Positions 2,400 through 54,402 of a stretch of 55,794 nt of DNA are shown piece after piece. The DNA comes from Verrucomicrobiota bacterium. Its GTDB lineage: Bacteria > Verrucomicrobiota > Verrucomicrobiia > Limisphaerales > J093. Within the stretch, counting starts at the first letter, position 1. Every line of letters starts with the position of its first letter. The notes under the pieces are model-generated. The model was not told where the DNA came from, did not search any database, and was given only the letters and a program-made list of their open reading frames with translations. A program made the position numbers and the translations under genes. The stretch lies in NCBI GenBank assembly GCA_012517065.1, contig JAAYVR010000283.1:1-55794 (forward strand). The letters are read 5' to 3'.

Positions 2400-2472
2400 G
2401 TTAATGACGGCAACTGTTCTGTGTCCTGGGTCTTCGGTCTTCGGTCTTTGCTCCTTATCCCTTGGCGTATGG

Positions 2473-3948: not shown

Positions 3949-3952
3949 GGAG

Positions 3953-4738: not shown

Positions 4739-4780
4739 TTGACGGAGTATTGCCCATGACGAGACTCAGGCAAGTAGATT
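4739..4780. promoter_or_regulatory. Short divergent promoter region between TPR-crtN operon and ALDH
   Basis: Only 42 bases separate the divergent starts, so promoter elements must overlap each other or the coding ends. On the minus strand TTGCCT, 16 bases and AATACT would place transcription near the GTG start. On the plus strand TTGACG is visible at 4739. Both matches are partial. Confidence 0.35.
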
Positions 4781-6163
4781 ATGGAAATCCCTGCCATGGT
4801 GCGTCAGCAGCGTCGGTTCTTTCAAACCGGCGCAACTCGGACGCTCGAGTTTCGGCTGTCCCAACTCGACAAACTCTCCGCAGTGCTCCACAAGTTCGAG
4901 CCGAGGCTGTTGAATGCGCTGCAACTTGATCTGCGAAAGTCACCGTTTCAGGGCTATGCGACCGAGCTTGGGCTTGTTCACGCTGAACTGCGACATGCGC
5001 GCAAGCACCTGTGCCGTTGGGCAGCTCCGAGCCGCCGGAAGACGCCGTGGTTTGCTGCGCCGTCGAGCGGCTGTGTGCAGTGCGAACCTCTCGGGGTTGC
5101 GCTGATTATGGGGCCATGGAACTACCCGGTGTCACTGGTGCTGACGCCGCTTGTGAGCGCGATCGCCGCCGGGAATTGCGTCGTACTGAAGCCGTCCGAA
5201 CTGGCGCCACACACCGCCGAGACAATCGCTGCCATGGCGGCAGATGCATTCCCGAATGATTATATCTCGGTCGTGACCGGCGGACCGGACGTGGCCGAGC
5301 TGTTGTTGCGCGAGCGGTTTGACAAGATTTTCTTCACCGGGAGCACGAGGATCGGACGGTTGGCCATGGCCGCAGCGGCACGGCATCTGACGCCGGTGAC
5401 ATTGGAACTTGGCGGGAAATGCCCGGCAATTGTTTGCGCTGATGCTGCGATTGAACTTGCTGCGCGGCGGATTGCATGGGGGAAATTCATGAACGCGGGC
5501 CAGACCTGCGTGGCGCCCGATTTTGTCCTCGTCGAGCGCGGCGTTGCTCGGGCTTTTCTTGGAGCGCTTGAGCGTTCACTGCGCGAGTTCTACGGCGAGA
5601 ATCCGGCCATGAGCCCGGATTATGGGCGGATAGTCAACAAACATCACTTTGAAAGGCTGGTGGGCTATTTGCGCGACGGCAAAGTTGCATGCGGAGGAGT
5701 GCATGCGGCTTCGGAGCTGTACATCGCACCGACGGTTCTGACGGATGTGAGTCCGGATTCAGCGGTGATGCAGGAGGAGATTTTTGGTCCGATTTTGCCC
5801 GTGCTCGAGTTCGGAGAGCTGGACGAGGCAATTGCTGCGGTGAAGGATCGGCCCACGCCGCTGGCTTTGTACGTCTTTACGCGCAGCCGCCAGACCGAAA
5901 CCCGCGTGATAGATGAGATCCGTTCAGGAGGCGTGTGTGTGAATGATGTGGTGATGCATATCGTGGGGTTCGACCTTCCATTTGGCGGGCTTGGGGATAG
6001 CGGCATGGGCGCCTACCACGGACGCGCGGGGTTCGATGCGTTTTCACATCAACGATCGATCATGCGGCGTGGGACATGGTTTGATGCGCCGGTGCGGTAT
6101 CCGCCGGCGCGAATGTCTCTCGACTGGTTAAAGCGGGCGATGAGGTTTTTACTAATCGACTGA
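4781..6163 (+). CDS. Aldehyde dehydrogenase, ALDH3-like (probable carotenoid aldehyde dehydrogenase)
   Basis: 460 residues, the length of short class-3 ALDHs. Visible family motifs are PWNYPVSL, the cofactor-binding segment NCVVLKPSE, FTGST, the general-base motif LELGGKCP, the nucleophile motif NAGQTCVAPD and EEIFGPILPV. It oxidises aldehydes to acids with NAD(P). In staphyloxanthin-type pathways an ALDH3-like AldH converts diaponeurosporen-al to the acid, and flanking by two CrtN/CrtP-like genes supports that role here. The ATG at 4796 is an alternative start. It is followed after 37 bases by the second desaturase on the same strand. Confidence 0.9.
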   Translation: MEIPAMVRQQRRFFQTGATRTLEFRLSQLDKLSAVLHKFEPRLLNALQLDLRKSPFQGYATELGLVHAELRHARKHLCRWAAPSRRKTPWFAAPSSGCVQCEPLGVALIMGPWNYPVSLVLTPLVSAIAAGNCVVLKPSELAPHTAETIAAMAADAFPNDYISVVTGGPDVAELLLRERFDKIFFTGSTRIGRLAMAAAARHLTPVTLELGGKCPAIVCADAAIELAARRIAWGKFMNAGQTCVAPDFVLVERGVARAFLGALERSLREFYGENPAMSPDYGRIVNKHHFERLVGYLRDGKVACGGVHAASELYIAPTVLTDVSPDSAVMQEEIFGPILPVLEFGELDEAIAAVKDRPTPLALYVFTRSRQTETRVIDEIRSGGVCVNDVVMHIVGFDLPFGGLGDSGMGAYHGRAGFDAFSHQRSIMRRGTWFDAPVRYPPARMSLDWLKRAMRFLLID

Positions 6164-6165
6164 GC

Positions 6166-6194
6166 TTGCCACAGATTGCTCCATGCTTTAGAAC
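6166..6194 (+). promoter_or_regulatory. Possible sigma70 promoter ahead of second desaturase
   Basis: TTGCCA (6166-6171), a 17-base spacer, TAGAAC (6189-6194). The expected transcription start coincides with the ATG at 6201, which would give a leaderless mRNA. The match is moderate (4 of 6 in each box). Confidence 0.3.
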
Positions 6195-6200
6195 TTCGAC

Positions 6201-7694
6201 ATGTCCGAGCGCGTCATCATCATAGGAGCGGGACCGGGCGGATTGGCAGCGGCGATCTTGTTGGCAAAGGCGGGGTTGGAAGTCACGGTCCTCGAAAAGC
6301 AATCAAGGGTTGGCGGGCGCACATCCACCATTGAAGGCGACGGCTACAGTTTTGATTTGGGGCCGACATTCTTTCTTTATCCACAAATCCTTGCTGACAT
6401 TTTTGCCGAGGCTGGGCGAGATCTTTACAAGGAATTGCCAATGACAAAGCTGGACCCGCAGTACCGCCTTGTTTTCGGTGCGGGCAGCGAATTGGCCGCC
6501 ACTCCAGACGTGGAACGGATGGTCAAGGAAATCGAAAAGTTATCGCCAACCGACGCGCCCAAGTTCCGTGAGTTCATCGATTATAATAGACGGAAGTTTG
6601 TGAAGTTTGCGCCTTGTCTGCAAATGCCGTTCCTCGGCTGGGGAAGCCTCCTGAGCCTGCGGCTGCTCATGGTTTTGCCATATCTCAAACCGTGGAAATC
6701 GCTGCATGCGGAACTGTCCGAGTTTTTCCACGATCCGCGTCTTCAACTGGCGTTTACGTTTCAGTCAAAGTATCTGGGAATGTCGCCGTTCCAATGTCCG
6801 AGCTTGTTCTCGATTCTTTCATTCCTTGAATACGAACACGGCGTTTGGCATCCGACAGGCGGGTGCAACAAGATCACCCAGGTCATGGCACGCGTTGCCC
6901 AAGAACTGGGAGCGACAATCCGTCTTAATACGCCAGTCGAACAAATCCTGTTCCGTGGACGGCGCGCGGTTGGGGTTCGAACGGCCGAAGGCGACCTGCA
7001 GGCTGAAGCTGTGGTTGTGAACGCGGACTTTGCACACGCGATGACGACTCTTGTGCCCAACAACCTGCGGCGGCGTTGGACCAATGAGAACATCGCGCAA
7101 AAGAGATTCTCCTGCTCGACGTTCATGATGTATCTGGGTGTGGAAGGGCGGTTCGACCAGCTTGCGCACCACAACATTTATATCGCCAGAGATTATCGAC
7201 GGAATCTCCTCGAGATAGAAGAACAGCATGTGCTCTCAGAGGACCCGTCGTTCTACGTCGAGAATCCTGTCCGGACCGATCCGACTATGGCGCCGCCCGG
7301 ACACAGCGCTTTGTATGTGCTGGTTCCTGTGACACATCAGCACCCGAACGTGGACTGGTCGAAAGAGAAAGCGCGGTTTCGCGAACTTGTGTTCAGGCAG
7401 CTCCCGAAAATTGGCTTGCCATCGGACCTTGCCGACCGGGTTCGCTTTGAACGTGTTGTGACACCAGTGGATTGGGAGAGCAAACTAAACATTTACCTCG
7501 GCGCAACATTCAACCTCGCGCACAGTTTCAGTCAAATGCTCCATTTCCGGCCGCGAAACAGGTTCGAAGATTTGGAGCGAGTGTACCTCGCCGGAGGCGG
7601 GACGCATCCCGGCAGCGGTCTGCCGGTGATCTTCGAATCCGCCCGCATCAGCTCGAAGTTGCTGATCAAGGACCTGCTTACTTCAACTTCCTGA
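6201..7694 (+). CDS. Phytoene/diapophytoene desaturase family (CrtN/CrtP-like) FAD enzyme
   Basis: 497 residues with FAD motif VIIIGAGPGGLAAAILLAKAG near the N-terminus, GGRTSTIEGDGYSFDLGPTFF (family diagnostic), the WHPTGGCNKI segment, and the C-terminal signature VYLAGGGTHPGSGLPVIFESA. It is clearly paralogous to the gene at 2473-3948 but divergent. C30 pathways use separate paralogues for desaturation (CrtN) and terminal methyl oxidation (CrtP), and this pair flanking an ALDH suits such a division. A squalene or dehydrosqualene synthase is not in the window. The 3' end overlaps the convergent pilT-like gene by 17 bases. Confidence 0.9.
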   Translation: MSERVIIIGAGPGGLAAAILLAKAGLEVTVLEKQSRVGGRTSTIEGDGYSFDLGPTFFLYPQILADIFAEAGRDLYKELPMTKLDPQYRLVFGAGSELAATPDVERMVKEIEKLSPTDAPKFREFIDYNRRKFVKFAPCLQMPFLGWGSLLSLRLLMVLPYLKPWKSLHAELSEFFHDPRLQLAFTFQSKYLGMSPFQCPSLFSILSFLEYEHGVWHPTGGCNKITQVMARVAQELGATIRLNTPVEQILFRGRRAVGVRTAEGDLQAEAVVVNADFAHAMTTLVPNNLRRRWTNENIAQKRFSCSTFMMYLGVEGRFDQLAHHNIYIARDYRRNLLEIEEQHVLSEDPSFYVENPVRTDPTMAPPGHSALYVLVPVTHQHPNVDWSKEKARFRELVFRQLPKIGLPSDLADRVRFERVVTPVDWESKLNIYLGATFNLAHSFSQMLHFRPRNRFEDLERVYLAGGGTHPGSGLPVIFESARISSKLLIKDLLTSTS

Positions 7695-8889
7695 GCACTT
7701 CCTGAAGGCCGCCTTCGACAGGCTCGATTTCTATCGGTTCCTTTGGTGTTTTCGGAGTATCTGGAACAGTTGGAGCCGGGCTCGCGGGCGTGCTCTTGGG
7801 CGCAACAGGAGCAATTGCCTGGCTTGGGGATTGGCTGGCGGGAATTGATTCGACGGGCTCCGTGTCAGGACTTTCGTCCGCCTGGCTCGGGATATGCCAA
7901 TGCTTTTGCTTGGCCATCCACTTCTGGTAGCGGTCGAACGTCCACATGTCATGCTCCGCGCCAGTTTCGAGTGCCTGCGGAATCCGGAAAAACTCGCGGT
8001 TCCGGACAAAGGCTTTGACAGGCATTGTCGGGCGCAGGATTTCGCACTCAGGTAGGCGAATTCCCAAATCCGCACGGAAACGCAACCGCTGGCAGACAAC
8101 TGCCACAAGACAATCGGCAAGCTGAGCGCAGATGTTGTTTTGGATTTCGGCGGGGAAAGCCAGCACTATGCGTTGCAGTGCCTCGGCACAACTACCCGAA
8201 TGCACAGTTGCGAAAACAAGGTGGCCTGTCTCCGCCACATTCAGCGTCAACCGCATCGTCTCCGGGTCACGCATCTCGCCCACCATCAGAACGTCCGGGT
8301 CCTCCCGCATGGCGTCCAGCAGAGCTTGCTCGAAGCTGGGCGTGTCGCGACCCACCTCGCGTTGCCGGATAAACGCGCGCCTTGGCCGGAAGGTGTACTC
8401 GATGGGGCTTTCAATTGTGACGACGTGCCTTGCCTCGGTCACATTGATTTCGTGAATCAGGGCCGCGAGCGTCGAGGATTTGCCGGATCCGGTCGGGCCG
8501 CTGATCAGAACCAAGCCGTGCGTGGGAACGACGAGTTTCTTGAGGTCCGGGTGAAGATTGAGCCGTTCGATTGTTGCTTGAAACGAGGCGAGCAATCGGA
8601 TTGCCAGCCCCACGCCCCGAGCGCTGTGCAATATGTTGAGCCTGCACCTGACACCGCCAATCGTCCGCGAGCAATCAAACGAACGCTTTTGCTCGAAAAC
8701 ATGCCAGTGTTCGGTCCCGACGATTTCCAGCGCCATCGCTTCCAGGGCTGCCGCAGGAAGCGGCTCTCCCGCAACCCGCAGTGCTCCGCGCACACGAAAT
8801 GCAGGCGGCAAACCGGGTTCCAAATGCAGATCACTGGCCCCCTGTTGGCGGGCAGTCGTGACCAATGATTCAAGGCTTTCCGTGTTCAT
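7678..8889 (-). CDS. PilT-like type IV pilus retraction ATPase
   Basis: 403 residues. Order seen: N-terminal PAS-like domain with the family motif ASDLHLEPG (residues 18-26), Walker A GPTGSGKSST (131-140), Asp box with ESPIEYTF, Walker B region DPDVLMVGEMRD typical of PilT, and His box GHLVFATVHS. PilT hexamers depolymerise pilin at the inner membrane, powering twitching. The C-terminal 65 or so residues are rich in Pro/Ala/Thr (PVAPKSTPASPAPTVP) and absent from standard PilT (about 345-370 residues). No other pilus genes are nearby, so a PilU-like or accessory role is possible. Confidence 0.88.
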   Translation of the reverse strand: MNTESLESLVTTARQQGASDLHLEPGLPPAFRVRGALRVAGEPLPAAALEAMALEIVGTEHWHVFEQKRSFDCSRTIGGVRCRLNILHSARGVGLAIRLLASFQATIERLNLHPDLKKLVVPTHGLVLISGPTGSGKSSTLAALIHEINVTEARHVVTIESPIEYTFRPRRAFIRQREVGRDTPSFEQALLDAMREDPDVLMVGEMRDPETMRLTLNVAETGHLVFATVHSGSCAEALQRIVLAFPAEIQNNICAQLADCLVAVVCQRLRFRADLGIRLPECEILRPTMPVKAFVRNREFFRIPQALETGAEHDMWTFDRYQKWMAKQKHWHIPSQADESPDTEPVESIPASQSPSQAIAPVAPKSTPASPAPTVPDTPKTPKEPIEIEPVEGGLQEVLRKLK

Positions 8890-43838: not shown

Positions 43839-44897
43839 ATGCGGATATCGCTTCGTGGAATAAGCAAGCGGTTTGGCAACCTCAAGGCGCTCGAGTGCGT
43901 TTCCTTGGATGTTGCGGACCGCGAGCTTTTCTTTTTGCTGGGCCCATCCGGATGCGGAAAGACAACGCTGTTGCGTATTGTGGCCGGGTTTACTCAACCC
44001 GACGCTGGCGAAGTGTGGTTTGGGGACCGATGCCTGAACGGTGTCCCACCGCATAAACGAAACACCGGCATGGTGTTCCAGAATTATGCGCTCTGGCCGC
44101 ACATGACAGTTGCAGAGAATGTCGCCTATGGACTCGAAGTCCGCGGTTTCAAACGCGACGAACGCGATCGGCTCGTTAATGAAGCATTGCAAACTGTGCG
44201 GCTTGAATCAGTGGCCGACCGCCGGCCTTCGGAGCTTTCAGGTGGTCAACAGCAGCGTGTCGCATTGGCACGTGCGCTGGTGATACGGCCGGACGTGTTG
44301 CTTCTGGACGAGCCGCTCTCGAATCTCGATGCACGGCTGAGACTCGAGTTGCGGGAGGAAATCCGCCGCATTCACGATCAGACTCATATCACGACATTGT
44401 ACGTGACCCACGAGCAGAAAGAGTCGCTCTCGATGGCGGACCGGATTGCGGTGATGCGTTCGGGCATGGTTGAACAGGTCGGCGCCCCCCGAGCTGTCTA
44501 TTCCAAGCCTGCGACTCGGTTCGTTGCCGATTTCATTGGCGAGTGCAATTGGCTGCCGGGCACTATCAACGCCAACGCAGCAGGCACCTGCTTGGTCGCC
44601 ACCGATTCAGGACAGTTGGAGGTTCATGACGCCGCCCGTTTCAATGACCGGCAGTCTGTGTGGGTTGGATTCCGCCCGGAAGCAGTGCAATTCGGCGTTT
44701 CACAGGTCAACCAGTTCAGAGCCAGAGTGGCGCAGGTCACCTACCTTGGCGAACTCGAGCAGTATGTCTTGGAACTGCCCGGAGGAATCACAATCAAGGC
44801 ACTGGATGCAAACCCCGTTGAAGTCAGAGCTCGCAACACCGAGTGGCCTGTGTACGTCTTGCCACGTAATGTCTTCTTGTTTCCCCGGTCCGATTGA
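43839..44897 (+). CDS. ABC transporter ATP-binding protein (FbpC/PotA/CysA type)
   Basis: 352 residues from the ATG at 43839. Upstream in-frame codons overlap the binding-protein gene and are not likely used. Walker A GPSGCGKTTLL, Q-loop NYALWPHMTVAENV, signature LSGGQQQR, Walker B VLLLDEPLSNLD, and a C-terminal TOBE domain (about 235-350) with RFVADFIGECNWLPG and FRPEAV. It energises an importer for iron, sulfate or polyamines. Pairing with the Fe3+-type binding protein favours iron. The cognate permease must be encoded elsewhere, if it exists. Confidence 0.92.
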   Translation: MRISLRGISKRFGNLKALECVSLDVADRELFFLLGPSGCGKTTLLRIVAGFTQPDAGEVWFGDRCLNGVPPHKRNTGMVFQNYALWPHMTVAENVAYGLEVRGFKRDERDRLVNEALQTVRLESVADRRPSELSGGQQQRVALARALVIRPDVLLLDEPLSNLDARLRLELREEIRRIHDQTHITTLYVTHEQKESLSMADRIAVMRSGMVEQVGAPRAVYSKPATRFVADFIGECNWLPGTINANAAGTCLVATDSGQLEVHDAARFNDRQSVWVGFRPEAVQFGVSQVNQFRARVAQVTYLGELEQYVLELPGGITIKALDANPVEVRARNTEWPVYVLPRNVFLFPRSD

Positions 44898-44918
44898 CCA
44901 GTCGCGCCGCCCTGCAAC

Positions 44919-44983
44919 CCGGAAAAATCACCGGCCACGCCATCGGATTCATCCATGCCTTCACTCGGGTGAGATTCCCGGGG
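44919..44983. repeat. REPIN-like palindrome (type beta core), after ABC ATPase gene
   Basis: CCCGGAAAAATCACCGG ... CGGGTGAGATTCCCGGG, 21 bases past the stop, in the convergent gap to ribH. Confidence 0.7.
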
Positions 44984-45156
44984 CAAGGAAACCCGCGCCC
45001 AAGCGAGAGAATCTCAATTGCCAGATCGCACACCGTGCCCCGCGCCACAGCCGATTTAGCCAACGTGGCCAGCGACACACCGTGGAACGTGTCGCTTATT
45101 GTTGGGTTTGGCGCGGGTTTCCCACAACGGCTTTGAGTATCTTCCGAGACAACAGC

Positions 45157-45624
45157 TCAGAGGGATTTGATCACTTCCTTCATTTGCAGCGCCGAAGCCG
45201 CGGCTTCGCGCCCGCGATTATGCGTGGGATCAAGACAACGGACTTTTGCCTGGTCACGGTTCTCCAGTAACAAAACCTCGTGAATCATTGGTACACCGGT
45301 TTCCACTTGAAGCCGGACCAGTGCGTCCGTGACCCCGCGGCCAATGAGATCCGCATGGGCAGTTTCGCCACGAATAATCACCCCAAGACAAATCACGGCG
45401 TCCCAACCGGGCTTTTCCTGGCGCGCGAGCCGTGCCGCCACCACGGGTATTTCAAATGCGCCGGGCACGCGTATGACTCGTATCTGAGATGCACCGGCGC
45501 TGCGGAGTTCAGCGGTGGCAGCGCGCACCATCGAATTGACGTAGCGGGCATTGTATCGCGACGCCACAATCGCGAATCGCCCGCCGCTGTTCCTGGCCGA
45601 GGTTGACTTTGTCTTTTGAAGCAT
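45157..45624 (-). CDS. ribH: 6,7-dimethyl-8-ribityllumazine synthase
   Basis: 155 residues. FAIVASRYNARYVNSMV, the VPGAFEIPVVA strand, IRGETAHADLIGRGVTDAL with the catalytic His, and DPTHNRGREAAASALQM are the lumazine synthase core. It joins dihydroxybutanone phosphate with the ribitylamino pyrimidine to give lumazine, the riboflavin precursor, in an icosahedral or pentameric shell. It starts 8 bases after ribBA, so the two genes form an operon. Confidence 0.95.
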   Translation of the reverse strand: MLQKTKSTSARNSGGRFAIVASRYNARYVNSMVRAATAELRSAGASQIRVIRVPGAFEIPVVAARLARQEKPGWDAVICLGVIIRGETAHADLIGRGVTDALVRLQVETGVPMIHEVLLLENRDQAKVRCLDPTHNRGREAAASALQMKEVIKSL

Positions 45625-45632
45625 GCTGTTTG

Positions 45633-46841
45633 TCAGAAAAGATGGCCCATCCGATCCCGTTTTGTCTTCAAGTACCGCGCGTTATGTGGGTTTGGCGGGA
45701 TGCGAATTGGGACCTGCTCGACCACTTCCAGGCCATAGCCTTCCAGGCCGATGATCTTCTTTGGATTATTGGTTAACAGCCTGATCTTGCGCAGGCCAAG
45801 GTCCGCAAGGATTTGAGCGCCAATCCCGTATTCACGGAGGTCCATCGGATATCCCAGTTTAAGGTTGGCATCGACAGTGTCGAGCCCACGCTCCTGAAGT
45901 TTGTAAGCGCGGATTTTTGGACCAAGGCCGATGCCGCGTCCTTCCTGCTTCATGTAAATTATCACTCCGCGCCCGGCTTGAGTGATTTGGCGCATCGCCT
46001 GCCGCAATTGAGGCCCGCAATCACACCGCAGAGAATGAAAAACGTCGCCTGTGAGACACTCGCTGTGAACACGCACCAGAACCGGGTCGTTGCCCGAAAC
46101 GTCCCCGCACACGAGCGCAATGTGATGTTGCCCATCAAGCTGGCTCCGATAAAGATGCAGTTCGAAATCGCCAAACTCGGTAGGCAATTTGACAGTCTCG
46201 ACGCGTTCCACCAGCCGCGTTCGCTGCCGACGGTACTCGATCAGGTCCTGAATGGACCCGAGCTTGAGCCTGTGTTTTTGAGCAAACCGCCGCAATTGTG
46301 GAAGCCTCGCCATGGTCCCGTCGTCGTTCATGATTTCACAAATCACTGCGATCGGCCTGCATCCTGCCAGGACGGCAAGATCGACGGCAGCTTCCGTGTG
46401 CCCGGCTCGTTGAAGCACTCCGCCGGGTTTGCATCGCAACGGGAACACGTGCCCCGGCTGAACAAGATCGGTCCGCGTCGCCCCCGGGTCTGCCATAACC
46501 TGGATTGTCCTTGCGCGGTCCGCTGCACTTATGCCGGTGGTGATTCCGTTTGCCGCATCGACGCTGACCTGAAAGTCGGTTTTGAAGGTCTCGCGGTTCT
46601 CCGCAACCATGCTTTCGATGCCAAGTTGCCGGAGGCGTTCCTCTGTGGTCGGAACGCAAATGAGGCCGCGCCCGTACTTGGCCATGAAATTCACAGCCTG
46701 CGGGGTCACGTGCTGGGCTGCCATGATCAGATCGCCTTCGTTTTCGCGTTCGGCATCATCAACAATGACAACCATCCGCCCCTTCCGTATATCGGCGATC
46801 AAGTCTTCGACTTTCGCAAATGCCTGTGTTCCTTTTTTCAC
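45633..46841 (-). CDS. ribBA: Bifunctional dihydroxybutanone-phosphate synthase / GTP cyclohydrolase II
   Basis: 402 residues from a GTG at 46841. N-terminal RibB half (1-210) with DDAERENEGDLIMAAQHV, GRGLICVP, RPGHVFPLR-like VQPGHVFPLRCKPGGVLQRAGHTEAAVDL. C-terminal RibA half with VRVHSECLTGDVFHSLRCDCG (zinc cysteines), KQEGRGIGL and LLTNNPKKIIGLEGYGL. It supplies both substrates for riboflavin synthesis. The leader carries a terminator-like hairpin (46888-46908) but no FMN riboswitch was recognised. Confidence 0.97.
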   Translation of the reverse strand: MKKGTQAFAKVEDLIADIRKGRMVVIVDDAERENEGDLIMAAQHVTPQAVNFMAKYGRGLICVPTTEERLRQLGIESMVAENRETFKTDFQVSVDAANGITTGISAADRARTIQVMADPGATRTDLVQPGHVFPLRCKPGGVLQRAGHTEAAVDLAVLAGCRPIAVICEIMNDDGTMARLPQLRRFAQKHRLKLGSIQDLIEYRRQRTRLVERVETVKLPTEFGDFELHLYRSQLDGQHHIALVCGDVSGNDPVLVRVHSECLTGDVFHSLRCDCGPQLRQAMRQITQAGRGVIIYMKQEGRGIGLGPKIRAYKLQERGLDTVDANLKLGYPMDLREYGIGAQILADLGLRKIRLLTNNPKKIIGLEGYGLEVVEQVPIRIPPNPHNARYLKTKRDRMGHLF

Positions 46842-46887
46842 TGCTGGCGGATGAAGATACGATTCTGTGGAGGGATTGTCAGGTCAT

Positions 46888-46908
46888 AAAAATGGCCCGG
46901 CTACGGGC
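46888..46908 (-). promoter_or_regulatory. Terminator-like hairpin in the ribBA leader
   Basis: Read on the minus strand: GCCCG-TAGC-CGGGC, then CA and five T, about 50 bases before the GTG start. An AGGAGG precedes the hairpin without an in-frame gene. This could be an attenuator or transcription-stop element. Confidence 0.4.
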
Positions 46909-47042
46909 ACGCCTCCTTTCGTGAACTTTCGATGCAAACGTTGGTCTGCTGACTTCTCATTTCGCTTTCGATGTTCCTCATCGACTCATTTTAGCGCACA
47001 ACGAGCTCCGCGCGGCGCCGCCCCAACCGATTGCTCCGCTAA

Positions 47043-47147
47043 CCCGGAAACCTCACCGGAATGAAGCTTTGGGTGTCTCGGTCGGGTCAGGCGGTGAGAT
47101 TGCCGGGCAAGCCACACTCATGCGTTCAATCCGATGAGATTTCCGGG
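47043..47147. repeat. REPIN-like palindrome (type alpha) plus an extra right arm
   Basis: CCCGGAAACCTCACCGG ... GCGGTGAGATTGCCGGG (47043-47107), with core AATGAAGCTTTGGGTGTC, followed by a second right arm CCGATGAGATTTCCGGG (47131-47147). It lies between divergent ribBA and the usp gene. The rest of the 400-base gap is the ribBA leader. Confidence 0.7.
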
Positions 47148-47242
47148 TTATTGTTCTGTAACCGAAATGTCCCGCTGAGTCTCAGTGATGGTGAGGCCAG
47201 TGCTTGGCCAAAGATAAACAACCAGATTACGCAGGATTTCGC

Positions 47243-48142
47243 ATGGCCGAAGAAAAATCATACAATCCTTCCACGGTGCTGTGCGCCGTGGATTTCAGCG
47301 AAGAGTCAAGATTGGCCCTGAAGTATGCCGGGACAGGTGCGACACTTTACGGCGCAAAACTCGTTGTCCTTCACGCTCAGCGGTTTGAGCTTCCGGCCTA
47401 TTTCACCCCGGACCAAATCGAGACCCTGACAAAGGAATTGGATTCTGCTCGAGCTGGGGCCGAAGATTCGTTGCGTCAATACTCGCGAGCCGCGCTCGGT
47501 CCATTGGCCGATTCACTCTCAATATCATACATGGTTGTGGATCAGCACCCCGTTGATGCAATTCTGGAAACCACAGGCAGGGTAAGCGCAAGTCTGGTCG
47601 TGCTGGGTACGCACGGTCGAGGCGGTGCCAAGCGGCTCTGGCTGGGATCAGTGGCGGAGAATGTGGCCACTCACTCGGAAGTGCCGGTGTTTGTTGTCAG
47701 GCAAAAACAGCATGATTTCATTGACGTTGCGAATCCTGGGTCGTCCTTGCGGTTGCGTACGATCATCGCCCCCGTGGATTTTAGCGAGGCTTCGCGCGCA
47801 GTGCTGCGTGTAAGTGCCTCGATTGCCGAGCGTTTCCAGGCCAAGGTGGTGCCGGTGTGCGTGGTACGACAAGATGCTGCGAGCGATCTCCGCAGCTCCG
47901 AAGCAATGCTTAAGGAATGGCTCGGACAGGTCAACGCAGCGCGTTGCATCGTCGAACCAGTGACCCGCGTCGGACATGCGGCAGAACAGATAATGGCCCT
48001 CATCAACGAAACCAAGGCCGACCTCGCTGTCCTTGGCGCCGAAAACTCACGCAGCGCAGGGCATCCTTTGCTCGGTCGAACGACCAAGCTGGTGTTGCGT
48101 CAGGCGCCCGTCCCCGTGCTGGTAGTGCCGCCGGGCACATGA
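47243..48142 (+). CDS. Tandem universal stress protein
   Basis: 299 residues from the ATG at 47243. TTG at 47204 would add 13 residues. Two UspA domains: residues about 7-155 (TVLCAVDFSEESRLALKYA ... VVLGTHGRGGAKRLWLGSVAENVATHSEVPVFVV) and about 168-298 (TIIAPVDFSEASRAVLRVS ... LAVLGAENSRSAGHPLLGRTTKLVLRQAPVPVLVV). The first has the GxxGRGG...GSVAE ATP-binding pattern. The second has a weaker version (no GRGG), suggesting one nucleotide-binding and one structural domain. General stress role. Confidence 0.93.
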   Translation: MAEEKSYNPSTVLCAVDFSEESRLALKYAGTGATLYGAKLVVLHAQRFELPAYFTPDQIETLTKELDSARAGAEDSLRQYSRAALGPLADSLSISYMVVDQHPVDAILETTGRVSASLVVLGTHGRGGAKRLWLGSVAENVATHSEVPVFVVRQKQHDFIDVANPGSSLRLRTIIAPVDFSEASRAVLRVSASIAERFQAKVVPVCVVRQDAASDLRSSEAMLKEWLGQVNAARCIVEPVTRVGHAAEQIMALINETKADLAVLGAENSRSAGHPLLGRTTKLVLRQAPVPVLVVPPGT

Positions 48143-48218
48143 GCGCAGCACAGCGCAGCCACGATTCAGTTCCAAAGGTTCACATTCGTATTGTGATAGG
48201 CTTGTTGTTTCGGTGTGG

Positions 48219-48580
48219 ACCCAAATAGGGTGACAGGCTCGTTGTTTGGGCTTTGCGCCCTGATTTCGGCGTGGCCCACAAATTGCCCATTGTTCCAATC
48301 CGCGGTTGCCGAGGTCTGTGTGCGAACCGCCCGCATGCAAATATGGGGACAGACACGTTATTTGTGCCGTCATGCCGATCTTGTTCTAGGCACGTTGTTT
48401 CGGCATGGAAACAAAGCGGCAGCAAGCTGCCGCACTCCAAACGCTTCGCGCCTGCCAACGCCCACTGCATCCAAGAGCTTCGCGCCTGCCAACACCCACT
48501 GCATCGGCAGCAGCGCGTTAGGAACCATTGGGATAAGCGGCCAGATGGAATGAGGCCATATGGGGACAGACACGTAGTTG
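48219..48580 (-). repeat. Composite GTGTCTGTCCCC element, copy 7 (inverted, full length)
   Basis: About 360 bp, the inverse of copy 1: CCCAAATAGGGTGACAGGCT, ATATGGGGACAGACACGTT, GCGGCAGC-AA-GCTGCCGC, and ATATGGGGACAGACACGTAG at the far end. A 28-bp stretch with GCGCCTGCCAACGCCCACTGCATC is duplicated at about 48450-48505. An outlying AGGCTTGTTGTTT variant precedes it (about 48198). Confidence 0.75.
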
Positions 48581-48723
48581 GCTCCGAGCGCCGCAGGCCG
48601 CCTTTTGCCGCAGGGGCAAAGCGCTGGGGTACCAAAATCAGGGCCAGAAAGCTTTCGGTTTTCCGGGTAAACGCGGAGCTATGACGGCGATGGGTTGTCC
48701 CGCACATCGGGCGATGCCACGCC

Positions 48724-49380: not shown

Positions 49381-49810
49381 ATGATAGCTGCCTCCAGATC
49401 GGCGCTGGATGCGAGCGGCAGCCCAGCCACCCTAGGCAAGCTGGGGACGGAGTTTGGTTTCAAGGCCGGAGCAAGCGGGGCACATGCGGCCCGCACCATG
49501 ATGCTGGCGGACCTCACCACCCTCTTGGCTGCCGTAAAGAACAAGGATGCCAAGCGCGACGATTACAACCGGCTGATTGTCGAGGAGAATGCCTTGGGAA
49601 AGCGCACCACATCGAACCGTTGGCTGACCGCCCGGACAATCCGGTGCTCCAGGTCAGCTTTGCGCCGGAGCACAAACGGGCGCTGGAGAAACTGGTCACC
49701 GACTTGCCGGTCGAGGTCTTCACCGCCGAGGACAGCCTTGGCTGGGTCTATCAGTTCTGGCAGGCGGAGCGCAAAGAGGAGCGTGGAATTCATCCCGCTT
49801 CGGCCTGCGT
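49381..49810 (+). pseudogene. Decayed defence genes: small conserved protein fused out of frame to an Eco57I-type methyltransferase fragment
   Basis: Frame 1 from ATG 49381 encodes about 80 plausible residues with ARTMMLADLTTLLAAVKNKDAKRDDY and LIVEENALGKRTTSNRWLTAR, resembling the start of a conserved protein that precedes PglX-like methyltransferases. From about 49625 the sense sequence moves to frame 3: DNPVLQVSFAPEHKRALEKLVTD, then VEVFTAEDSLGWVYQFWQAERKEE, which I recognise as the N-terminal region of Eco57I-type N6-adenine methyltransferases of BREX/Pgl-like loci. Everything downstream of that (catalytic NPPY domain) is missing. The likely event is a deletion joining two neighbouring genes. 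Family names rest on motif memory. Confidence 0.5.
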
Positions 49811-50012
49811 TGTCAGGGCGGTGAAACGGACTTAAGTCCGCGTTCCGGGAGCGATTTTGACCTTTTTGAGCATTCTTGTGGCCAGTCTGGAATGCTGCAA
49901 CTTGCTGGTATGGCGGTGGATAAACTGCAAACCGACCGTTGGTGAATAGCGGTTTAGATTCTTGCCGCAAAAATGAAGTGAATTTTAGAATAACTATGGT
50001 ACACTGAAGCGC

Positions 50013-51257
50013 ATGTTTGACCGATGGTATGCGGCAGAGTTGAAGGCGAGTCTGGAGCGGCCCTACGTCCAGTTGATCTTCGGGGCACGCCAGACGGGCA
50101 AGACGACCCTGCTTAATGCGCTGTTGCCGCCGGAGACACTGCGGGTGGATTTGTCGGACCCGGAGGTGCGGTCGCGGCATCTGGCTGACCCTGGACTGTT
50201 CCTGAAGCTGTGTCGTGACCTGCCTGCGGATCGGGAGGGACGATTCGTGTTTGTGGACGAGGCGCAGGCGGTGCCGACGGTTTTCGACGGGGTGCAGCAT
50301 CTTTACGACAAGGACAAACGGCGCTGGCGTTTCGTGCTGTGCGGCAGTTCGGCGCGCAAGCTGCGGAAAACCGGAGCGAACTTGCTTCCGGGCCGCTGCT
50401 TCTACCATCGGCTTTACCCGTTGACGATGGCCGAGCACCCACCCGAGCCGAAACGGATAGAATACGCCGTGTCGCCCCTGCCGCTGGAGTGGAACACAGG
50501 AGCGGCGCCAGCGAATCCGTTTCCGGCCTGGGGCCTGGAAGAACGGCTGGCTTACGGGGCGTTGCCGGGGGTGGTGGCGGCCGAGGAAGCGGATCGGGCG
50601 CGAATGCTCACGGGATTCACGCTGGTGCATTTGGAGGAGGAAATCCGGCGAGAGGCACTGGTGAAGGACTGGGGCGCGTTTGTGCGGTTCCTGGAGCTGG
50701 CCGCCGCCGAGTCAGGACAGATTCTCAACTACGCCGGAATCGCCAAGGAGACGGGGCTTTCGCAGCCGACCGTCAAGTCGCATTACCAGTTGTTGGAGGA
50801 CATGTTCATCGGCTTCCGCGTGCCGGTGTATTCGGGCAGCAAACGCAAGAATCTGCTCTCAACACCGAAGTTCCTGCTTTTCGACCTGGGCGTGCGGCAC
50901 GCGGCGGCGGGGCTGAAGGCGTCACGGGAAATTGTGCGGGTCAATCCGGGCGCGTTCTTCGAGCAGTGGGTGGGAATCGAGTTATGGAAGCGGCTGCAAT
51001 ACCTCGGCGAAGGCCGGTTGCACTACCTGCGCACCCGCGACGGAATGGAGATTGACTACATCGTGGAGCACCGTGGCGCTCTGACCCCCATCGAGGTCAA
51101 GTGGACGGAGCGTCCAACGGTTCAAGATGCCCGCCATCTGCTGACTTTCCTCGGGGAGCATCCGAAACAGGCCAAGCATGGCTATGTGATTTGCCGCTGT
51201 TCGGCGCCCTTACGCATTCATGATCAAGTCACGGCGCTCCCGTGGTTCTGCCTATGA
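50013..51257 (+). CDS. AAA-family ATPase with DUF4143 domain
   Basis: 414 residues. Walker A GARQTGKTT (residues 24-32), Walker B FVFVDEAQAVP, sensor-like FVLCGSSARKLRKTGANLLPGR, a helical region with TGLSQPTVKSHYQLLEDMFIGFRVPVYSGSKRKN, then the DUF4143 restriction-endonuclease-like fold with FLLFDLGVRHAA, FEQWVGIELWKR, MEIDYIVEHRGALTPIEVKWTERP (a PD-(D/E)xK pattern: D, then E-x-K). Such ATPases are common and mobile, sometimes acting like toxin-antitoxin or defence accessories. It is intact between remnants of a defence locus. Confidence 0.85.
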   Translation: MFDRWYAAELKASLERPYVQLIFGARQTGKTTLLNALLPPETLRVDLSDPEVRSRHLADPGLFLKLCRDLPADREGRFVFVDEAQAVPTVFDGVQHLYDKDKRRWRFVLCGSSARKLRKTGANLLPGRCFYHRLYPLTMAEHPPEPKRIEYAVSPLPLEWNTGAAPANPFPAWGLEERLAYGALPGVVAAEEADRARMLTGFTLVHLEEEIRREALVKDWGAFVRFLELAAAESGQILNYAGIAKETGLSQPTVKSHYQLLEDMFIGFRVPVYSGSKRKNLLSTPKFLLFDLGVRHAAAGLKASREIVRVNPGAFFEQWVGIELWKRLQYLGEGRLHYLRTRDGMEIDYIVEHRGALTPIEVKWTERPTVQDARHLLTFLGEHPKQAKHGYVICRCSAPLRIHDQVTALPWFCL

Positions 51258-51354
51258 AAACTAATCAGACACAAAGAGGCGCAAAAGGCGCAAAGAGCAG
51301 AATGGAAACTTTGTTTTTGTGTCTTTTGTGTCTTTTTGTGGCCATCCCTCTCTT

Positions 51355-51465
51355 ATGACCGTTCTTGAGGCGCCCATCGAATCGCTCAGCCGAGCCGGTT
51401 AATACAACCGGGACGACCAGGTTGCGCCCTACGCCCACCTGATCTCAGGCGGCAAAACCACCGTG
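51355..51465 (+). pseudogene. Possible PglZ N-terminal remnant with nonsense codon
   Basis: ATG at 51355 gives MTVLEAPIESLSRAG, then TAA (51400-51402), then in the same frame YNRDDQVAPYAHLISGGK. If TAA was GAA, the peptide reads SRAGEYNRDDQVAP, like the start of PglZ-type phosphatases of BREX/Pgl-like systems. Sense is lost after about 51465. A weak but context-supported call. Confidence 0.35.
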
Positions 51466-52026
51466 GCGCGAATGTTCGTCAATATTGTTACGTTGCACGT
51501 TAATTTGAGGGGAAATTCTCATAATAATTTGTCGGATTTGGGTGCATGTGATCATGATAATCAGAGAGGGTGTTGGGATGTTGTTATGGAGGATTGGTGG
51601 TGTGGATGTGTTCAGGATGTTTGATGGCCGAGGCTCGGAGCCCATGACGTCGCGGAAAAAGCGCTGAACCTTTCCTAGCCCACCACGACGAGGTTTCCGC
51701 ACATAAACCGTTGGTAATAAGGCAAAGTTTTGGAGACTTGGTATTAGCCCTAATTCTGGTTCGAGGACCTCTGTGCGGCGGGATCAGGAGGCCTGAGGCG
51801 GCCAAGAAGCGCCAGTGGGCCAGCTCCGGTACCGAAGTGCATTGTGCAGCGATGTCCATTTGGCCATCCCCGCCATCCGCCCCAACCTGCCAATCGACGA
51901 TCTCGACCTCGGCAGCAACGCCATTATGTGGTGAACCACATTGTTGGACATCAGGCGGTGCCGAGAACTCGGTCTTTTCTGCTTGTGCAAGGAAACCAGT
52001 TGTGTTCCACCAAATGTCCGCGCCTC
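51466..52026. other. Degraded intergenic sequence
   Basis: No intact gene is recognised. One short open stretch (about 51798-51932, plus strand) reads RSALCSDVHLAIPAIRPN then LPIDDLDLGSNAIMW and a stop, protein-like in composition but unassigned. A minus-strand frame of 148 codons over 51584-52030 overlaps it and looks like an antisense shadow. Confidence 0.35.
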
Positions 52027-54393
52027 TCACGGCGCCAAAACAGCCCGATAGAAGAGGTACGGTTCTATGATCGCTCCCGCGTAGAAGAGCGTCTGACCCC
52101 TGGCTGGCAATGGCAGGACCGCCGCTTCTTCCCAGTTCACCAAATCCCGGCTCTGCTCCAATCGTACCAATCTCCCGGGTTCACCTTGAATCGTGAACTT
52201 GAACCCCAACTGAACAAACACAAGCCCCACAAACCGGTACGGATTGAACTCGTAAGCACCGATGTCGAACTGGGCAACCCCATCGCCGTTGCCGTCCAAT
52301 GGACGTGGCAGCCCGACAATGTCTGTGGACACGATGTCAGTCAGGTTCATGCCAGCGTCGATACAGGGCGAGTCTGGCAGGAGCCGGAAGTCTCCTGCAG
52401 CCGCATTCACAAACCGGGGATCAGCATCGATGTTGGCCACGCCATCCGTTGGCAAGGGCGTCGTGCAACAATAGTTCATTGCTGCATCGTAGTGGTTTGG
52501 CCCATTTGTGCCTTCATTAAAATAGACGATACAATTGTAAAGCGTGCTTTCGGAGGCTCCCCCGCCGTAATAAGCCGAGTTACCGCTCAAAGTGCAATTG
52601 TAAAGCGTGCAGTTGGCAGCGCCTCCGCCGTACGTCCAAGCCGAGTTGCCAGTCAAAGTGCAGTTGTAAAGCGTGCTCTGCTCGGCACCGCCGCCCGAAC
52701 GAGCCGAGTTGCCGGTCAAAGTGCAGTTGTAAAGCCTGGCCGCGAAGGCGCCACCGCCGGGACCTCCAGCCGAGTTCCCAGCAAGCAAGCAGTTAGTAAT
52801 CACACACGCCCACGGGGTCACGTAAACTCCACCACCGAACCCATAAAGGTATGATCCATTGGTGACAGTGAACCCGGAGAGTATCGCCCCGTTGGCCAGA
52901 TAAACGCACCGCATCTTGCCATTGCCGTCGATAATCGTCGTTTCTGGTCCTTGAACGCTCTTCACGATTAGAGGCTTCTCAATCACAACACGGTTTGTGC
53001 TGCCGTCCGAAGCTTGATATTCACCCGCGGCGTATGTCCCGTTGGCAACCAACACAGTGGCTCCTGGCACAGTCGCCGCGTCTACTGCATCCTGAATGTT
53101 TGTCGCCGCAGTAGCCCACGATGTATATGGAGGTAAAGGATTCAGACTGTTTGCAGAAACATAGTGCACGACTTCGACCACTTTGATGGTCACGTTTGTG
53201 CTGACTCCCTCGGGATGGTCGTTGTTGAAGACCGTGAACGTGACCTTGTAGTCACCGGGCGAAGTCCATGCATGAGTAACGTACACCCGATTGGTTGCTC
53301 GGGTTCCATCCCCAAAATCCCAGGCGTTGCCTGTTACGTTCCCCTCGACAAAGCCCTTGAAGTTCTGTGGATAGCCAACTCCGACAGTGTCAAAAGCCGC
53401 TTGGACTGTTGCTCCCAGAGGCCCTGTGAGCGCCTCAGAGTGAACTTCATCGCAACCAATCGATGGCGGACTTGCCCACGGTTCCCCGTCGATGTCAACG
53501 CCGGTTGCATATGCGGCATTGCCTGCACCACGACACGGAGAAGTCACAGCGATGTGCCCCATACTGACCAATTGTGGATCAGCGTCGATATTGCCCACAC
53601 CGTTGAAAGGCAAAGGAGCTGTACAGCAATAGTTGAGTTTACTCTCAAAGTGGTTCGCCTCAAAGGCCGCCATGTTGTCATAAACAATCGAGTTGTAGGC
53701 AGTGGACCGGGAAAGGCCACCACCTTGCTCGGCCGAGTTGCCGGTAACAGTGCAGTTGTAAAGCGTGCTTTTGTAGGCGGCGCCGCCGCTCGACCCAGCC
53801 GAGTTGCCGGTCAAAATGCAGTTGTAGAGTGTGCCGCCGTATGCACCGCCGCCGCGCTGTGCAGCCGAGTTGCCCATCAAGACGCAATTCGTAACAACGG
53901 CGTCCGTGGACGCACAGTACACACCGCCACCTACGTCAACATCCAGTCCGCTCACAAGGGATTTTGTCGTGGAGCCCTTCGTCAATGTGAAACCTGACAA
54001 TGTGGCCCCAGCGGCAAGATAAACGCATCGGACTGGGCCGAATCCGTACGTCGTTACAGGCAGTTGATAGCCCTCGATCACCGTAAACTTCGGACCGTTG
54101 ACGCTCCTCAGCGTGAGCGCCTTTAAAACCGCCACACGGTTGCTCGTCGCCGAGTACTTATCCGGCTGGCCGCCAGTCGTATAAACCCCGTTGGTCACCA
54201 GGACCTCGTCACCTCTGGATGCATAATTGACAGCCTGCTGGATAACACGCGCCGCAGTGTTCCAGTTAGTGTAGGGCGGTTTCGGGTCAGGACTCTCAGA
54301 CCAGACGTACAACGTCGCCCCCAACGACTTCCACATGAAGCCGCTTAAAACCACCAGAACCGGAATTATACTTGTCACTCTTGGGGTTTTCAT
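52027..54393 (-). CDS. Secreted choice-of-anchor-Q beta-helix protein with central PKD domain
   Basis: 788 residues from the ATG at 54393. Signal peptide about 1-27 (SIIPVLVVLSGFMWKSLGA). Two homologous beta-helix halves start with PPYTNWNTAARVIQQAV and PPYTSWATAATNIQDAVDAA, each with a GG.VYC/VYV..VVTNC segment, repeats of the type TLYNCTLTGNSA-x(4-5)-GGGA, and endings NIDADPQLV / NIDADPRFVN. Between them is a PKD domain (FKGFVEGNVTGNAWDFGDGT ... HAWTSPGDYKVTFTV). Probably a surface or secreted adhesin or polysaccharide-binding protein. The repeats are also visible as DNA tandem repeats of 63-66 bp. Confidence 0.85.
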   Translation of the reverse strand: MKTPRVTSIIPVLVVLSGFMWKSLGATLYVWSESPDPKPPYTNWNTAARVIQQAVNYASRGDEVLVTNGVYTTGGQPDKYSATSNRVAVLKALTLRSVNGPKFTVIEGYQLPVTTYGFGPVRCVYLAAGATLSGFTLTKGSTTKSLVSGLDVDVGGGVYCASTDAVVTNCVLMGNSAAQRGGGAYGGTLYNCILTGNSAGSSGGAAYKSTLYNCTVTGNSAEQGGGLSRSTAYNSIVYDNMAAFEANHFESKLNYCCTAPLPFNGVGNIDADPQLVSMGHIAVTSPCRGAGNAAYATGVDIDGEPWASPPSIGCDEVHSEALTGPLGATVQAAFDTVGVGYPQNFKGFVEGNVTGNAWDFGDGTRATNRVYVTHAWTSPGDYKVTFTVFNNDHPEGVSTNVTIKVVEVVHYVSANSLNPLPPYTSWATAATNIQDAVDAATVPGATVLVANGTYAAGEYQASDGSTNRVVIEKPLIVKSVQGPETTIIDGNGKMRCVYLANGAILSGFTVTNGSYLYGFGGGVYVTPWACVITNCLLAGNSAGGPGGGAFAARLYNCTLTGNSARSGGGAEQSTLYNCTLTGNSAWTYGGGAANCTLYNCTLSGNSAYYGGGASESTLYNCIVYFNEGTNGPNHYDAAMNYCCTTPLPTDGVANIDADPRFVNAAAGDFRLLPDSPCIDAGMNLTDIVSTDIVGLPRPLDGNGDGVAQFDIGAYEFNPYRFVGLVFVQLGFKFTIQGEPGRLVRLEQSRDLVNWEEAAVLPLPARGQTLFYAGAIIEPYLFYRAVLAP
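52537..52800 (-). repeat. Intragenic tandem repeats, 63-66 bp
   Basis: Four units each with AGCCGAGTT(A/G)CC..TCAAAGTGCA(A/G)TTGTAAAGC encode the TLYNC(T)LTGNSA-GGGA coils. Similar units recur at about 53690-53890. Copy number may vary between strains. Confidence 0.75.
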
Positions 54394-54402
54394 AACTCCC
54401 AC

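What the first reader, a model, noticed from the sequence alone, without database searches (positions are those of the whole stretch)
49381..51465. Ruined BREX/Pgl-type defence locus around an intact DUF4143 ATPase
Three broken pieces in the right relative order: a small conserved protein resembling the one upstream of PglX-like methyltransferases, the LGWVYQFWQ segment of an Eco57I-type methyltransferase, and a PglZ-like N-terminus. Only the DUF4143 ATPase between them remains intact, as if it inserted or survived selection. It is flanked by a REPIN-like palindrome and the long repeat.
Basis: partly seen in the sequence, partly recalled or inferred. Interest (0 to 1): 0.55.

Follow-up and report, generated by a model that had tools for sequence, protein, structure and literature searches.

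The report
Dead phage-defence operon, surviving embedded gene
A bacterial anti-phage gene cluster (BREX) has been almost entirely deleted here, but an extra ATPase gene that sat inside it, itself a suspected phage-defence gene, is still intact and looks conserved by selection.

Summary
They flank an intact DUF4143 ATPase (50013-51257). PADLOC gives BrxA 2.4e-20, PglX 2.1e-22 and, for the ATPase, PDC-S01 6.6e-68. Genome searches with PglX, PglZ, BrxC and BrxL found no intact copy. The ATPase did not arrive after the ruin: same-family genome G002 has a 93% identical copy in the same pglX-pglZ slot, with DNA aligned across it. The backbone went by internal deletions with ends in short similar sequences; a dispersed repeat cuts off brxL. 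The ATPase keeps its upstream region, its motifs and low dN/dS (0.05-0.08). It was thus an embedded accessory gene that outlived its operon, which fits, but does not prove, autonomous defence. Passengers in this BREX slot, and PDC-S01 as an embedded candidate, are already described: a new member of a known kind. A lead: where the slot is visible, 5 of 5 related operons with DUF4143 there are broken, against 1 of 15 others (small, clade-confounded).

The parts
49381..49635 (+). BrxA N-terminal fragment (85 codons), out of frame with what follows
   Evidence: PADLOC BrxA PDLC02450 E=2.4e-20, profile 9-70 of 259; tblastn 48% to the G049 BrxA; blastn 70% to the G013 brxA
49630..49781 (+). PglX fragment (model residues about 140-194); the left junction with brxA lies in a 6-nt overlap at 49630-49635
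   Evidence: PADLOC PglX PDLC02528 E=2.1e-22; 88% DNA identity to the G002 pglX
49769..50012 (+). Former pglX-pglZ slot: pglX 3' flank joined to the PglX fragment (junction about 49769-49785), and the upstream region of the ATPase; includes palindrome 49826-49841
   Evidence: Window 49769-51428 aligns in one piece at 82.6% to G002 L042:2456-4115; 49904 or 49939 onward also aligns to G010 and G005, where no BREX was found in the flanks
50013..51257 (+). Intact DUF4143 ATPase (AAA_14 + DUF4143; PADLOC candidate PDC-S01), 414 aa
   Evidence: Pfam DUF4143 5.4e-33, AAA_14 7.1e-23; PADLOC PDC-S01 6.6e-68; 93% to the slot copy in G002; dN/dS 0.05-0.08 against three relatives
51258..51354 (+). Intergenic stretch with a CAAAG-rich imperfect hairpin between the ATPase and pglZ
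   Evidence: A like stretch at the same position in G002 (also matches in reverse orientation); window 51264-51428 is 85% identical to G006 L085, beside a different DUF4143 subfamily
51355..51429 (+). PglZ N-terminal fragment (25 codons, one in-frame stop)
   Evidence: tblastn with the G047 PglZ 81%, E=7e-8; blastn to pglZ starts of G047, G002, G013 and G094, G006, G260
51418..51486 (+). BrxL internal fragment (residues 241-263), overlapping the PglZ fragment end by about 11 nt
   Evidence: tblastn with the G047 BrxL 87%, E=2.8e-9; own-genome search with the G002 BrxL E=2e-6
51486..51803 (.). Two abutting dispersed repeats (about 51486-51635 and 51626-51803) that cut off the BrxL fragment
   Evidence: 36 matches of 51480-52040 listed in the own genome, the window's own copy included; three other copies compared

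Best explanation
This is the wreck of a type 1 BREX anti-phage operon (brxA-brxB-brxC-pglX-[DUF4143]-pglZ-brxL). A PDC-S01-type ATPase (AAA_14 + DUF4143) was embedded as an accessory gene in the pglX-pglZ slot before the operon died. SHOWN: the four core scraps, their order, and the same passenger in the same slot of a related operon. SHOWN by comparison: the backbone is missing in at least three internal blocks (about 5 kb brxA to pglX, about 2.8 kb pglX to its 3' flank, about 3.0 kb pglZ to brxL; sizes read off relatives), with joints in short similar sequences, and the rest of brxL is cut off by dispersed repeats. SHOWN: the passenger is open and has diverged under constraint, and its upstream region is conserved also in copies outside BREX. 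INFERRED: it has its own promoter and an autonomous benefit, so deletions that spared it were kept. INFERRED mechanism: the AAA domain couples sensing of an invader or of a host perturbation to a C-terminal PD-(D/E)XK nuclease that cuts nucleic acid, a single-gene back-up effector comparable in role to the PARIS module embedded in Salmonella BREX. I put about 0.9 on the ruined-BREX and embedded-passenger part, about 0.7 on retention by selection for its own function, and about 0.4 on the nuclease-effector mechanism.
For: HMM hits for BrxA, PglX and PDC-S01; PglZ and BrxL scraps by tblastn. G002 has PglX C-terminus - DUF4143 (93%) - PglZ - BrxL in order, with DNA aligned through the slot. G013 (same family) has a ruined operon with other breakpoints, BrxA part - DUF4143 (62%) - PglZ::BrxL, the ATPase open. 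dN/dS of the ATPase, window against three relatives: 0.062, 0.052, 0.084. On the window branch the scraps show 8 non-synonymous (the PglZ stop counted in) to 12 synonymous changes, against 16.5:81.5 or 14:91 for the ATPase (Fisher 0.029 and 0.008 on rounded counts); the same codons on the G002 and G082 branches show 1:11 and 1:5. Upstream region conserved in G002, G010 and G005. Walker A G24, Q27, T28, G29 and T32, Walker B D82/E83, and E317, D348, E361 and K363 of a PD-(D/E)XK-like motif (assignment mine) are invariant in 21 of 21 aligned sequences, window included; K30 only nearly. PMC12988326 (passages read) describes PDC-S01 as an ATPase fused to a PD-(D/E)XK member and as a guilt-by-embedding candidate. 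PMC9009780 (passages): Salmonella LT2 and E. coli HS BREX differ by a pglX-pglZ indel holding an ATPase and a DUF4435 gene. PMC11341690 (passages): Salmonella D23580 BREX has an embedded PARIS; that the LT2 pair is the same PARIS is recalled.
Against: The AlphaFold model of the ATPase was poor (pLDDT 40.7, 4-row alignment), so the nuclease fold rests on residues and literature. The PDB profile search matched only the AAA part, weakly (best E 0.0011). DUF4143 genes are very common (88 of 320 genomes of the order match one subfamily at 1e-85; 88 of 320 match the window protein at 1e-20), so landing in BREX now and then could be chance. In the PglZ scan 1 of 66 loci with both pglX and pglZ hits in the stretch had DUF4143 between them. 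In G260 only a DUF4143 scrap is left in the wreck, so the passenger does not always survive. Pairwise dN/dS of the scraps is low too (PglX 0.07-0.10, BrxL 0.09-0.13, PglZ 0.13-0.30 against relatives): most divergence predates the operon's death, so constraint after the death is only weakly shown.
Confidence: 0.85

Rival explanations
1. Survival by chance: the operon died recently, deletions happened to fall either side of the slot, and the ATPase has simply not decayed yet.
For: The PglX, PglZ and BrxL scraps are still 80-89% identical in protein to relatives and have low pairwise dN/dS, so the death may be recent. The passenger is only about 1.2 kb of a roughly 15 kb operon (sizes from L089 and L091).
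Against: Window-branch N:S differs between scraps and ATPase, on small counts. In three other wrecks, G013, G094 and G006, the slot ATPase is open too; in a fourth, G260, it is not.
Confidence: 0.25
2. The ATPase is a mobile or selfish passenger that inserted into BREX, and its arrival or its activity helped to kill the operon (incompatibility or addiction).
For: Close orthologues sit in unrelated contexts with only about 75-110 bp of shared upstream DNA. Where the slot is visible, 5 of 5 BREX operons with DUF4143 in it are broken (G002, G013, G094, G006, G260; window left out) against 1 of 15 with other or no slot content (Fisher 0.0004 on my hand count).
Against: Within the one subclade that holds all five, the contrast is 5/5 against 1/3 (p=0.11), so shared ancestry may explain it. 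The breaks differ in kind (an insertion element in G002, deletions elsewhere). I did not find ends or a target duplication around the ATPase in the flanks that I read, without a systematic search.
Confidence: 0.12
3. The ATPase is unrelated to defence (a housekeeping or toxin-antitoxin-like gene) and its place in BREX is accidental.
For: 41 of 43 DUF4143 loci other than the window and 15 of 15 of the second subfamily show no BREX in the flanks held, some of which are short. PDC-S01 is a candidate; [quoted passage not shown]
Against: Two different DUF4143 subfamilies occupy the same slot in several operons. PMC12988326 reports PDC-S01 as a guilt-by-embedding candidate.
Confidence: 0.2
4. The scraps are chance look-alikes, not BREX.
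For: Each piece is short (23-85 codons).
Against: E-values from 2e-22 to 7e-8, collinear order, and a one-piece DNA alignment to a BREX operon of the same family.
Confidence: 0.01

Closest known systems
BREX type 1 (brxA, brxB, brxC, pglX, pglZ, brxL)
   Same: The scraps are brxA, pglX, pglZ and brxL in that order; relatives G077, G097, G204 and G246 carry all six
   Different: No core gene is intact here; brxC was not found in the genome; brxB was not searched there
PDC-S01 (PADLOC single-gene defence candidate, AAA_14 + DUF4143)
   Same: PADLOC E=6.6e-68; ATPase plus PD-(D/E)XK-like residues
   Different: Here it lies inside a dead BREX operon; defence activity untested
PARIS (ariA/ariB) embedded in Salmonella BREX
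   Same: ATPase-based accessory module inside BREX (PMC11341690 passages); in LT2 the pglX-pglZ indel holds an ATPase and a DUF4435 gene (PMC9009780 passages)
   Different: AriA is an OLD-ABC ATPase with a separate TOPRIM nuclease (PMC12839542 section 35 part 1); here a single AAA_14 + DUF4143 protein
Auxiliary/backup nuclease effectors of BREX (PMC12839542)
   Same: PD-(D/E)XK enzymes are given there as the most prevalent auxiliary effectors, some fused to ATPases (section 35 part 1 read)
   Different: AAA_14 does not occur in its main text, and it was not among the papers holding the word DUF4143

Membership tests
BREX type 1 | Core genes brxA-brxB-brxC-pglX-pglZ-brxL in this order (gene order recalled, and seen in relatives) | tested here: inconclusive
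   Four of six as scraps in the right order; brxB and brxC missing at the locus. Four relatives show all six in order. Met for a ruin, not for a complete operon
BREX type 1 | Intact PglX methyltransferase and PglZ (functional system) | tested here: not met
   PglX about 55 codons, PglZ 25 codons with a stop; no second match in the genome with the 77-aa PglX piece or with PglZ at 1e-10
BREX type 1 | N6-adenine methylation of a non-palindromic motif | not testable with these tools
   Needs methylome data
PDC-S01 (PADLOC candidate) | Match to the PDC-S01 profile over the whole protein | tested here: met
   PDLC04790, residues 2-413, profile 12-416 of 422, E=6.6e-68
PDC-S01 (PADLOC candidate) | ATPase motifs and PD-(D/E)XK residues | tested here: met
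   Invariant in 21 of 21 aligned sequences: G29, T32, D82, E83, E317, D348, E361, K363; K30 is only nearly invariant. Motif assignment mine
PDC-S01 (PADLOC candidate) | PD-(D/E)XK fold | tested here: inconclusive
   AlphaFold model too poor, pLDDT 40.7; PDB profile search hit only the AAA part
PDC-S01 (PADLOC candidate) | Embedded within another defence system | tested here: met
   In the pglX-pglZ slot of G002 BREX; here inside its wreck
PDC-S01 (PADLOC candidate) | Anti-phage activity | not testable with these tools
   Needs experiment
REPIN/REP element (49826-49841) | Many dispersed copies in the genome | tested here: not met
   Two places only, at one mismatch or fewer

The most novel reading that the evidence does not exclude
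The ATPase is not merely a survivor but conditional on, or a cause of, BREX loss: DUF4143/PDC-S01 enzymes in the pglX-pglZ slot are incompatible with, or make redundant, the BREX core, so operons that acquire one degenerate while the ATPase takes over as a stand-alone defence. In the sampled order, 5 of 5 such operons with a visible slot are broken (window not counted) against 1 of 15 others.
Probability: 0.1. Interest if true: 0.65.

Novelty: new member of a known kind. Interest (0 to 1): 0.36.

Why it matters
Embedded genes are taken as defence candidates because of where they sit. An embedded gene that stays open and constrained after its host operon has been deleted is independent evidence that it works alone. 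This 'outliving' test could rank guilt-by-embedding candidates, PDC-S01 (given as the fourth most common defence across prokaryotes in PMC12988326, passage seen) first among them. The locus also shows how a defence operon of roughly 15 kb can vanish down to scraps of 23-85 codons while its cargo remains.

Tried and rejected
Rejected: that the ATPase inserted after the operon died (G002 has it in the same slot with aligned flanks). Rejected: that the palindrome is a REPIN. Not supported: that the ATPase is phage-borne (one relative, 32%, confirmed among 32 pattern matches in IMG/VR; the scan is pattern-based). Not supported: DUF4143 as a regular BREX component (1 of 66 loci with both pglX and pglZ hits in the stretch; 2 of 43 DUF4143 flanks; 0 of 15 for the second subfamily).

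Led nowhere: AlphaFold of the ATPase (pLDDT 40.7); PDB profile search (only weak AAA hits). In the same-genus genome G001, DNA matches to the left (44155-48213, 89.7%) and then diverges; no BREX or DUF4143 was found in the 10.4 kb held (two BrxL hits at 0.003-0.004 fall on an ORF that looks like an ABC-transporter ATPase), so no empty site could be defined. Literature: 'DUF4143' with 'defence' found 0 papers, 'DUF4143' alone 1, 'PDC-S01' 3; BREX with remnant/pseudogene terms found 6, judged only from titles and abstract starts. One search was an empty script.

Caveats on the 5/5 against 1/15 count, which I made by hand. It uses places where the slot is visible on the contig. The 15 are G049, G077, G045, G082, G087, G097, G110, G130, G140 (C363 and C139), G204, G238, G246, G307 and, broken, G269. 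In G045 and G110 the best PglX alignment crosses one stop codon, which lies at the end of the open frame; I counted them unbroken. The window is left out because it was the ascertained case. G047 (slot without DUF4143, but pglX start unclear at the contig end) and G006:C432 (contig end) are left out. Places whose slot is off the contig are left out: G265, G072, G302, G140:C295, and G149, whose pglZ is truncated. Several 'unbroken' places show only part of the operon. One search also holds an earlier table of mine, 5/5 against 2/20 (0.0004), which included the places without a visible slot. G002 is called broken because of an insertion element in pglX; I read its matching ends and an 8-nt duplication by eye from the contig ends printed, and the joining of the two contigs is inferred. 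'ISL3-like' would be recalled, not from a call.
Full report
WHAT IS THERE. The window lies in a fragmented genome (G000, 298 contigs, 95% complete) of a Verrucomicrobiota-like lineage (inferred from relatives: the G002 contig is the record of Verrucomicrobia bacterium ADurb.Bin006). Between a universal-stress-protein gene (47204-48142, Pfam Usp) and a large PKD-domain gene on the minus strand (52027-54402) there is a 2.1 kb stretch with one intact gene and four scraps. Scrap 1, 49381-49635, is the N-terminus of BrxA (PADLOC 2.4e-20). Scrap 2, 49630-49781, is a PglX segment (PADLOC 2.1e-22; NCBIfam BREX-1 PglX 4e-4), out of frame with scrap 1. Scrap 3, 51355-51429, is the first 25 codons of PglZ with one stop. 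Scrap 4, 51418-51486, is BrxL residues 241-263. The intact gene, 50013-51257, is an AAA_14 + DUF4143 ATPase, PADLOC candidate PDC-S01.

NOT CHANCE. The pieces are short, but their E-values run from 2e-22 to 7e-8 (the two shortest fall to 3e-6 and 1e-7 in the larger set). They are collinear, and the PglX, PglZ and BrxL scraps lie at DNA identities of 82-91% to BREX genes of G002 and G047; the brxA scrap is 70% identical to that of G013. A search of 58 genomes with the PglX piece found 6 with a match, the window's genome included. A PglZ search of 320 genomes of the order found 26 at 1e-10, G000 not among them. BrxC was not found in G000 and BrxL only as the scrap plus a weak 24% hit elsewhere. 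BrxA and BrxB were not searched in the whole genome.

THE PASSENGER CAME FIRST. In G002, contig C73 carries PglX C-terminus (720-2396), a DUF4143 ATPase 93% identical to the window's (2700-3941), PglZ (4042-6363) and BrxL (6367-8412). Window DNA 49769-51428 aligns in one piece to G002 2456-4115 at 82.6%, covering the pglX 3' flank, the ATPase and the pglZ start. So the ATPase occupied the pglX-pglZ slot before the window's operon was lost. Outside BREX, the next closest orthologues (G010 91%, G005 89%) share only the gene and about 75-110 bp upstream; their flanks show no BREX. The upstream region is conserved among all four, which suggests an own promoter (inferred).

HOW THE OPERON DIED. Junction brxA|pglX lies in a 6-nt overlap (49630-49635). 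Junction pglX|slot lies around 49769-49785, in similar GCGCAA-containing sequences. Junction pglZ|brxL lies in about 11 nt that both parents resemble (51418-51428). This is what deletion between short repeats leaves. The right end of the BrxL scrap coincides with the start of a dispersed repeat of about 150 nt, followed by a second dispersed repeat.

IS THE ATPASE STILL USED? Pairwise dN/dS between the window and G002, G010 and G005 is 0.062, 0.052 and 0.084; among the three relatives it is 0.10-0.14. Against my reading, the scraps also have low pairwise values (PglX 0.07-0.10, BrxL 0.09-0.13, PglZ 0.13-0.30 against relatives), so most of their divergence predates the death. Counting changes on the window branch where two relatives agree, the scraps have 8 non-synonymous (stop included) and 12 synonymous changes and the ATPase 16.5 and 81.5 (or 14 and 91 with another pair); Fisher p=0.029 and 0.008 on rounded counts. 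The same scrap codons on the G002 and G082 branches show 1:11 and 1:5. This supports rather than proves continued selection. Motif residues are invariant in 21 of 21 aligned sequences, except Walker A K30, which is nearly invariant.

OTHER WRECKS. In the same order: G013 has a BrxA part - DUF4143 (62%) - PglZ fused to the BrxL end. G094 has PglX end - another DUF4143 subfamily - PglZ 1-34 followed by 663-774 - BrxL 1-67. G006:C5 has the latter DUF4143 subfamily and PglZ 1-75 in two frames. G260 has a BrxC part - DUF4143 scrap - PglZ scraps. G269 has a BrxA part - PglX end - a region with acetyltransferase-like ORFs (one confirmed by Pfam) - PglZ with stops. PADLOC calls the G094 and G006 ATPases PDC-S01 too. 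In G013 and G094 the ATPase stop overlaps the pglZ start (ATGA). In G002 pglX is split by an insertion element with an 8-nt duplication (read by eye). Slots of operons without a visible break hold other genes, among them AIPR, an AAA_15/AAA_21 ATPase, Schlafen AlbA_2, a DUF4062 protein and an MqsA-like antitoxin, or nothing. Of places with the slot visible, 5 of 5 with DUF4143 (window excluded) and 1 of 15 without are broken (hand count; Fisher 0.0004). Within the subclade that holds all five it is 5/5 against 1/3, p=0.11. I treat this as a lead; exclusions are listed under Tried and rejected.

WIDER SAMPLE. A PglZ-profile scan of one genome per species kept the best 80 of 411 loci; 66 had pglX and pglZ hits in the stretch, and only G002's own record had DUF4143 between them. 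Of 43 DUF4143 loci (31 of the order, 12 of the phylum) 2 lie in BREX; of 15 of the second subfamily, none. Some of these flanks are short because contigs end. DUF4143 is therefore a rare BREX passenger and a common gene elsewhere (88 of 320 genomes at 1e-20).

AGAINST THE LITERATURE. PMC9009780 (passages): Salmonella LT2 and E. coli HS BREX differ by a two-gene indel, ATPase and DUF4435, between pglX and pglZ. [quoted passage not shown] PMC12839542 (section 35 part 1 and passages): PD-(D/E)XK enzymes are the most prevalent auxiliary nucleases of BREX and related systems. PMC12988326 (passages): PDC-S01 is a guilt-by-embedding candidate, an ATPase fused to a PD-(D/E)XK member. PMC13356809 (passages) only counts it in rumen genomes. 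So both the slot and the passenger are known kinds; the retained passenger in a dead operon is a new instance, and I saw no paper on it in the searches.

VERDICT. The finding is confirmed, its interpretation is supported with corrections, and the kind is known. Interest is moderate-low as a locus, higher as a method (embedded genes that outlive their host operon) and as a possible DUF4143-BREX conflict.

Noticed in passing
window 51486-51803: Two abutting dispersed repeats of about 150 and 175 nt; of 36 listed matches 5 further ones fall on the first and 29 on the second, some partial. One copy of the second seems by eye to have short inverted ends (GAGGCTCAGAC-like), so it may be a MITE; a 9-nt inverted-repeat check of the window copy found none.
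   Followed up: partly
window 48191-48590: Repeated motifs of the kind 'GGGGACAGACACGTTATTTG' and two tandem 34-nt copies between the Usp gene and the brxA scrap.
   Followed up: no
window 51272-51342; L042:3955-4025; L085:9332-9423: A CAAAGAGGCGCAAAAGGCGCAAAG...TTTGTGTCTTTTTGTGGCC imperfect hairpin sits between the slot gene and pglZ in the window, G002 and G006, beside different DUF4143 subfamilies, as if slot genes were exchanged upstream of it.
   Followed up: partly
L042:8821-9863 (G002): A second, internally deleted DUF4143 gene of the G094/G006 subfamily (78% over its C-terminal part) lies just behind brxL in the operon of G002.
   Followed up: no
L010/L088 (G002, G082): Second passenger slot between brxC and pglX: a GxxExxY-like ORF in G002, a reverse-transcriptase-like ORF in G082 (names recalled from sequence).
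   Followed up: no
window 48213 onward: Same-genus genome G001 is 89.7% identical to window 44155-48213 and then diverges, so the Usp 3' side is a variable site.
   Followed up: partly
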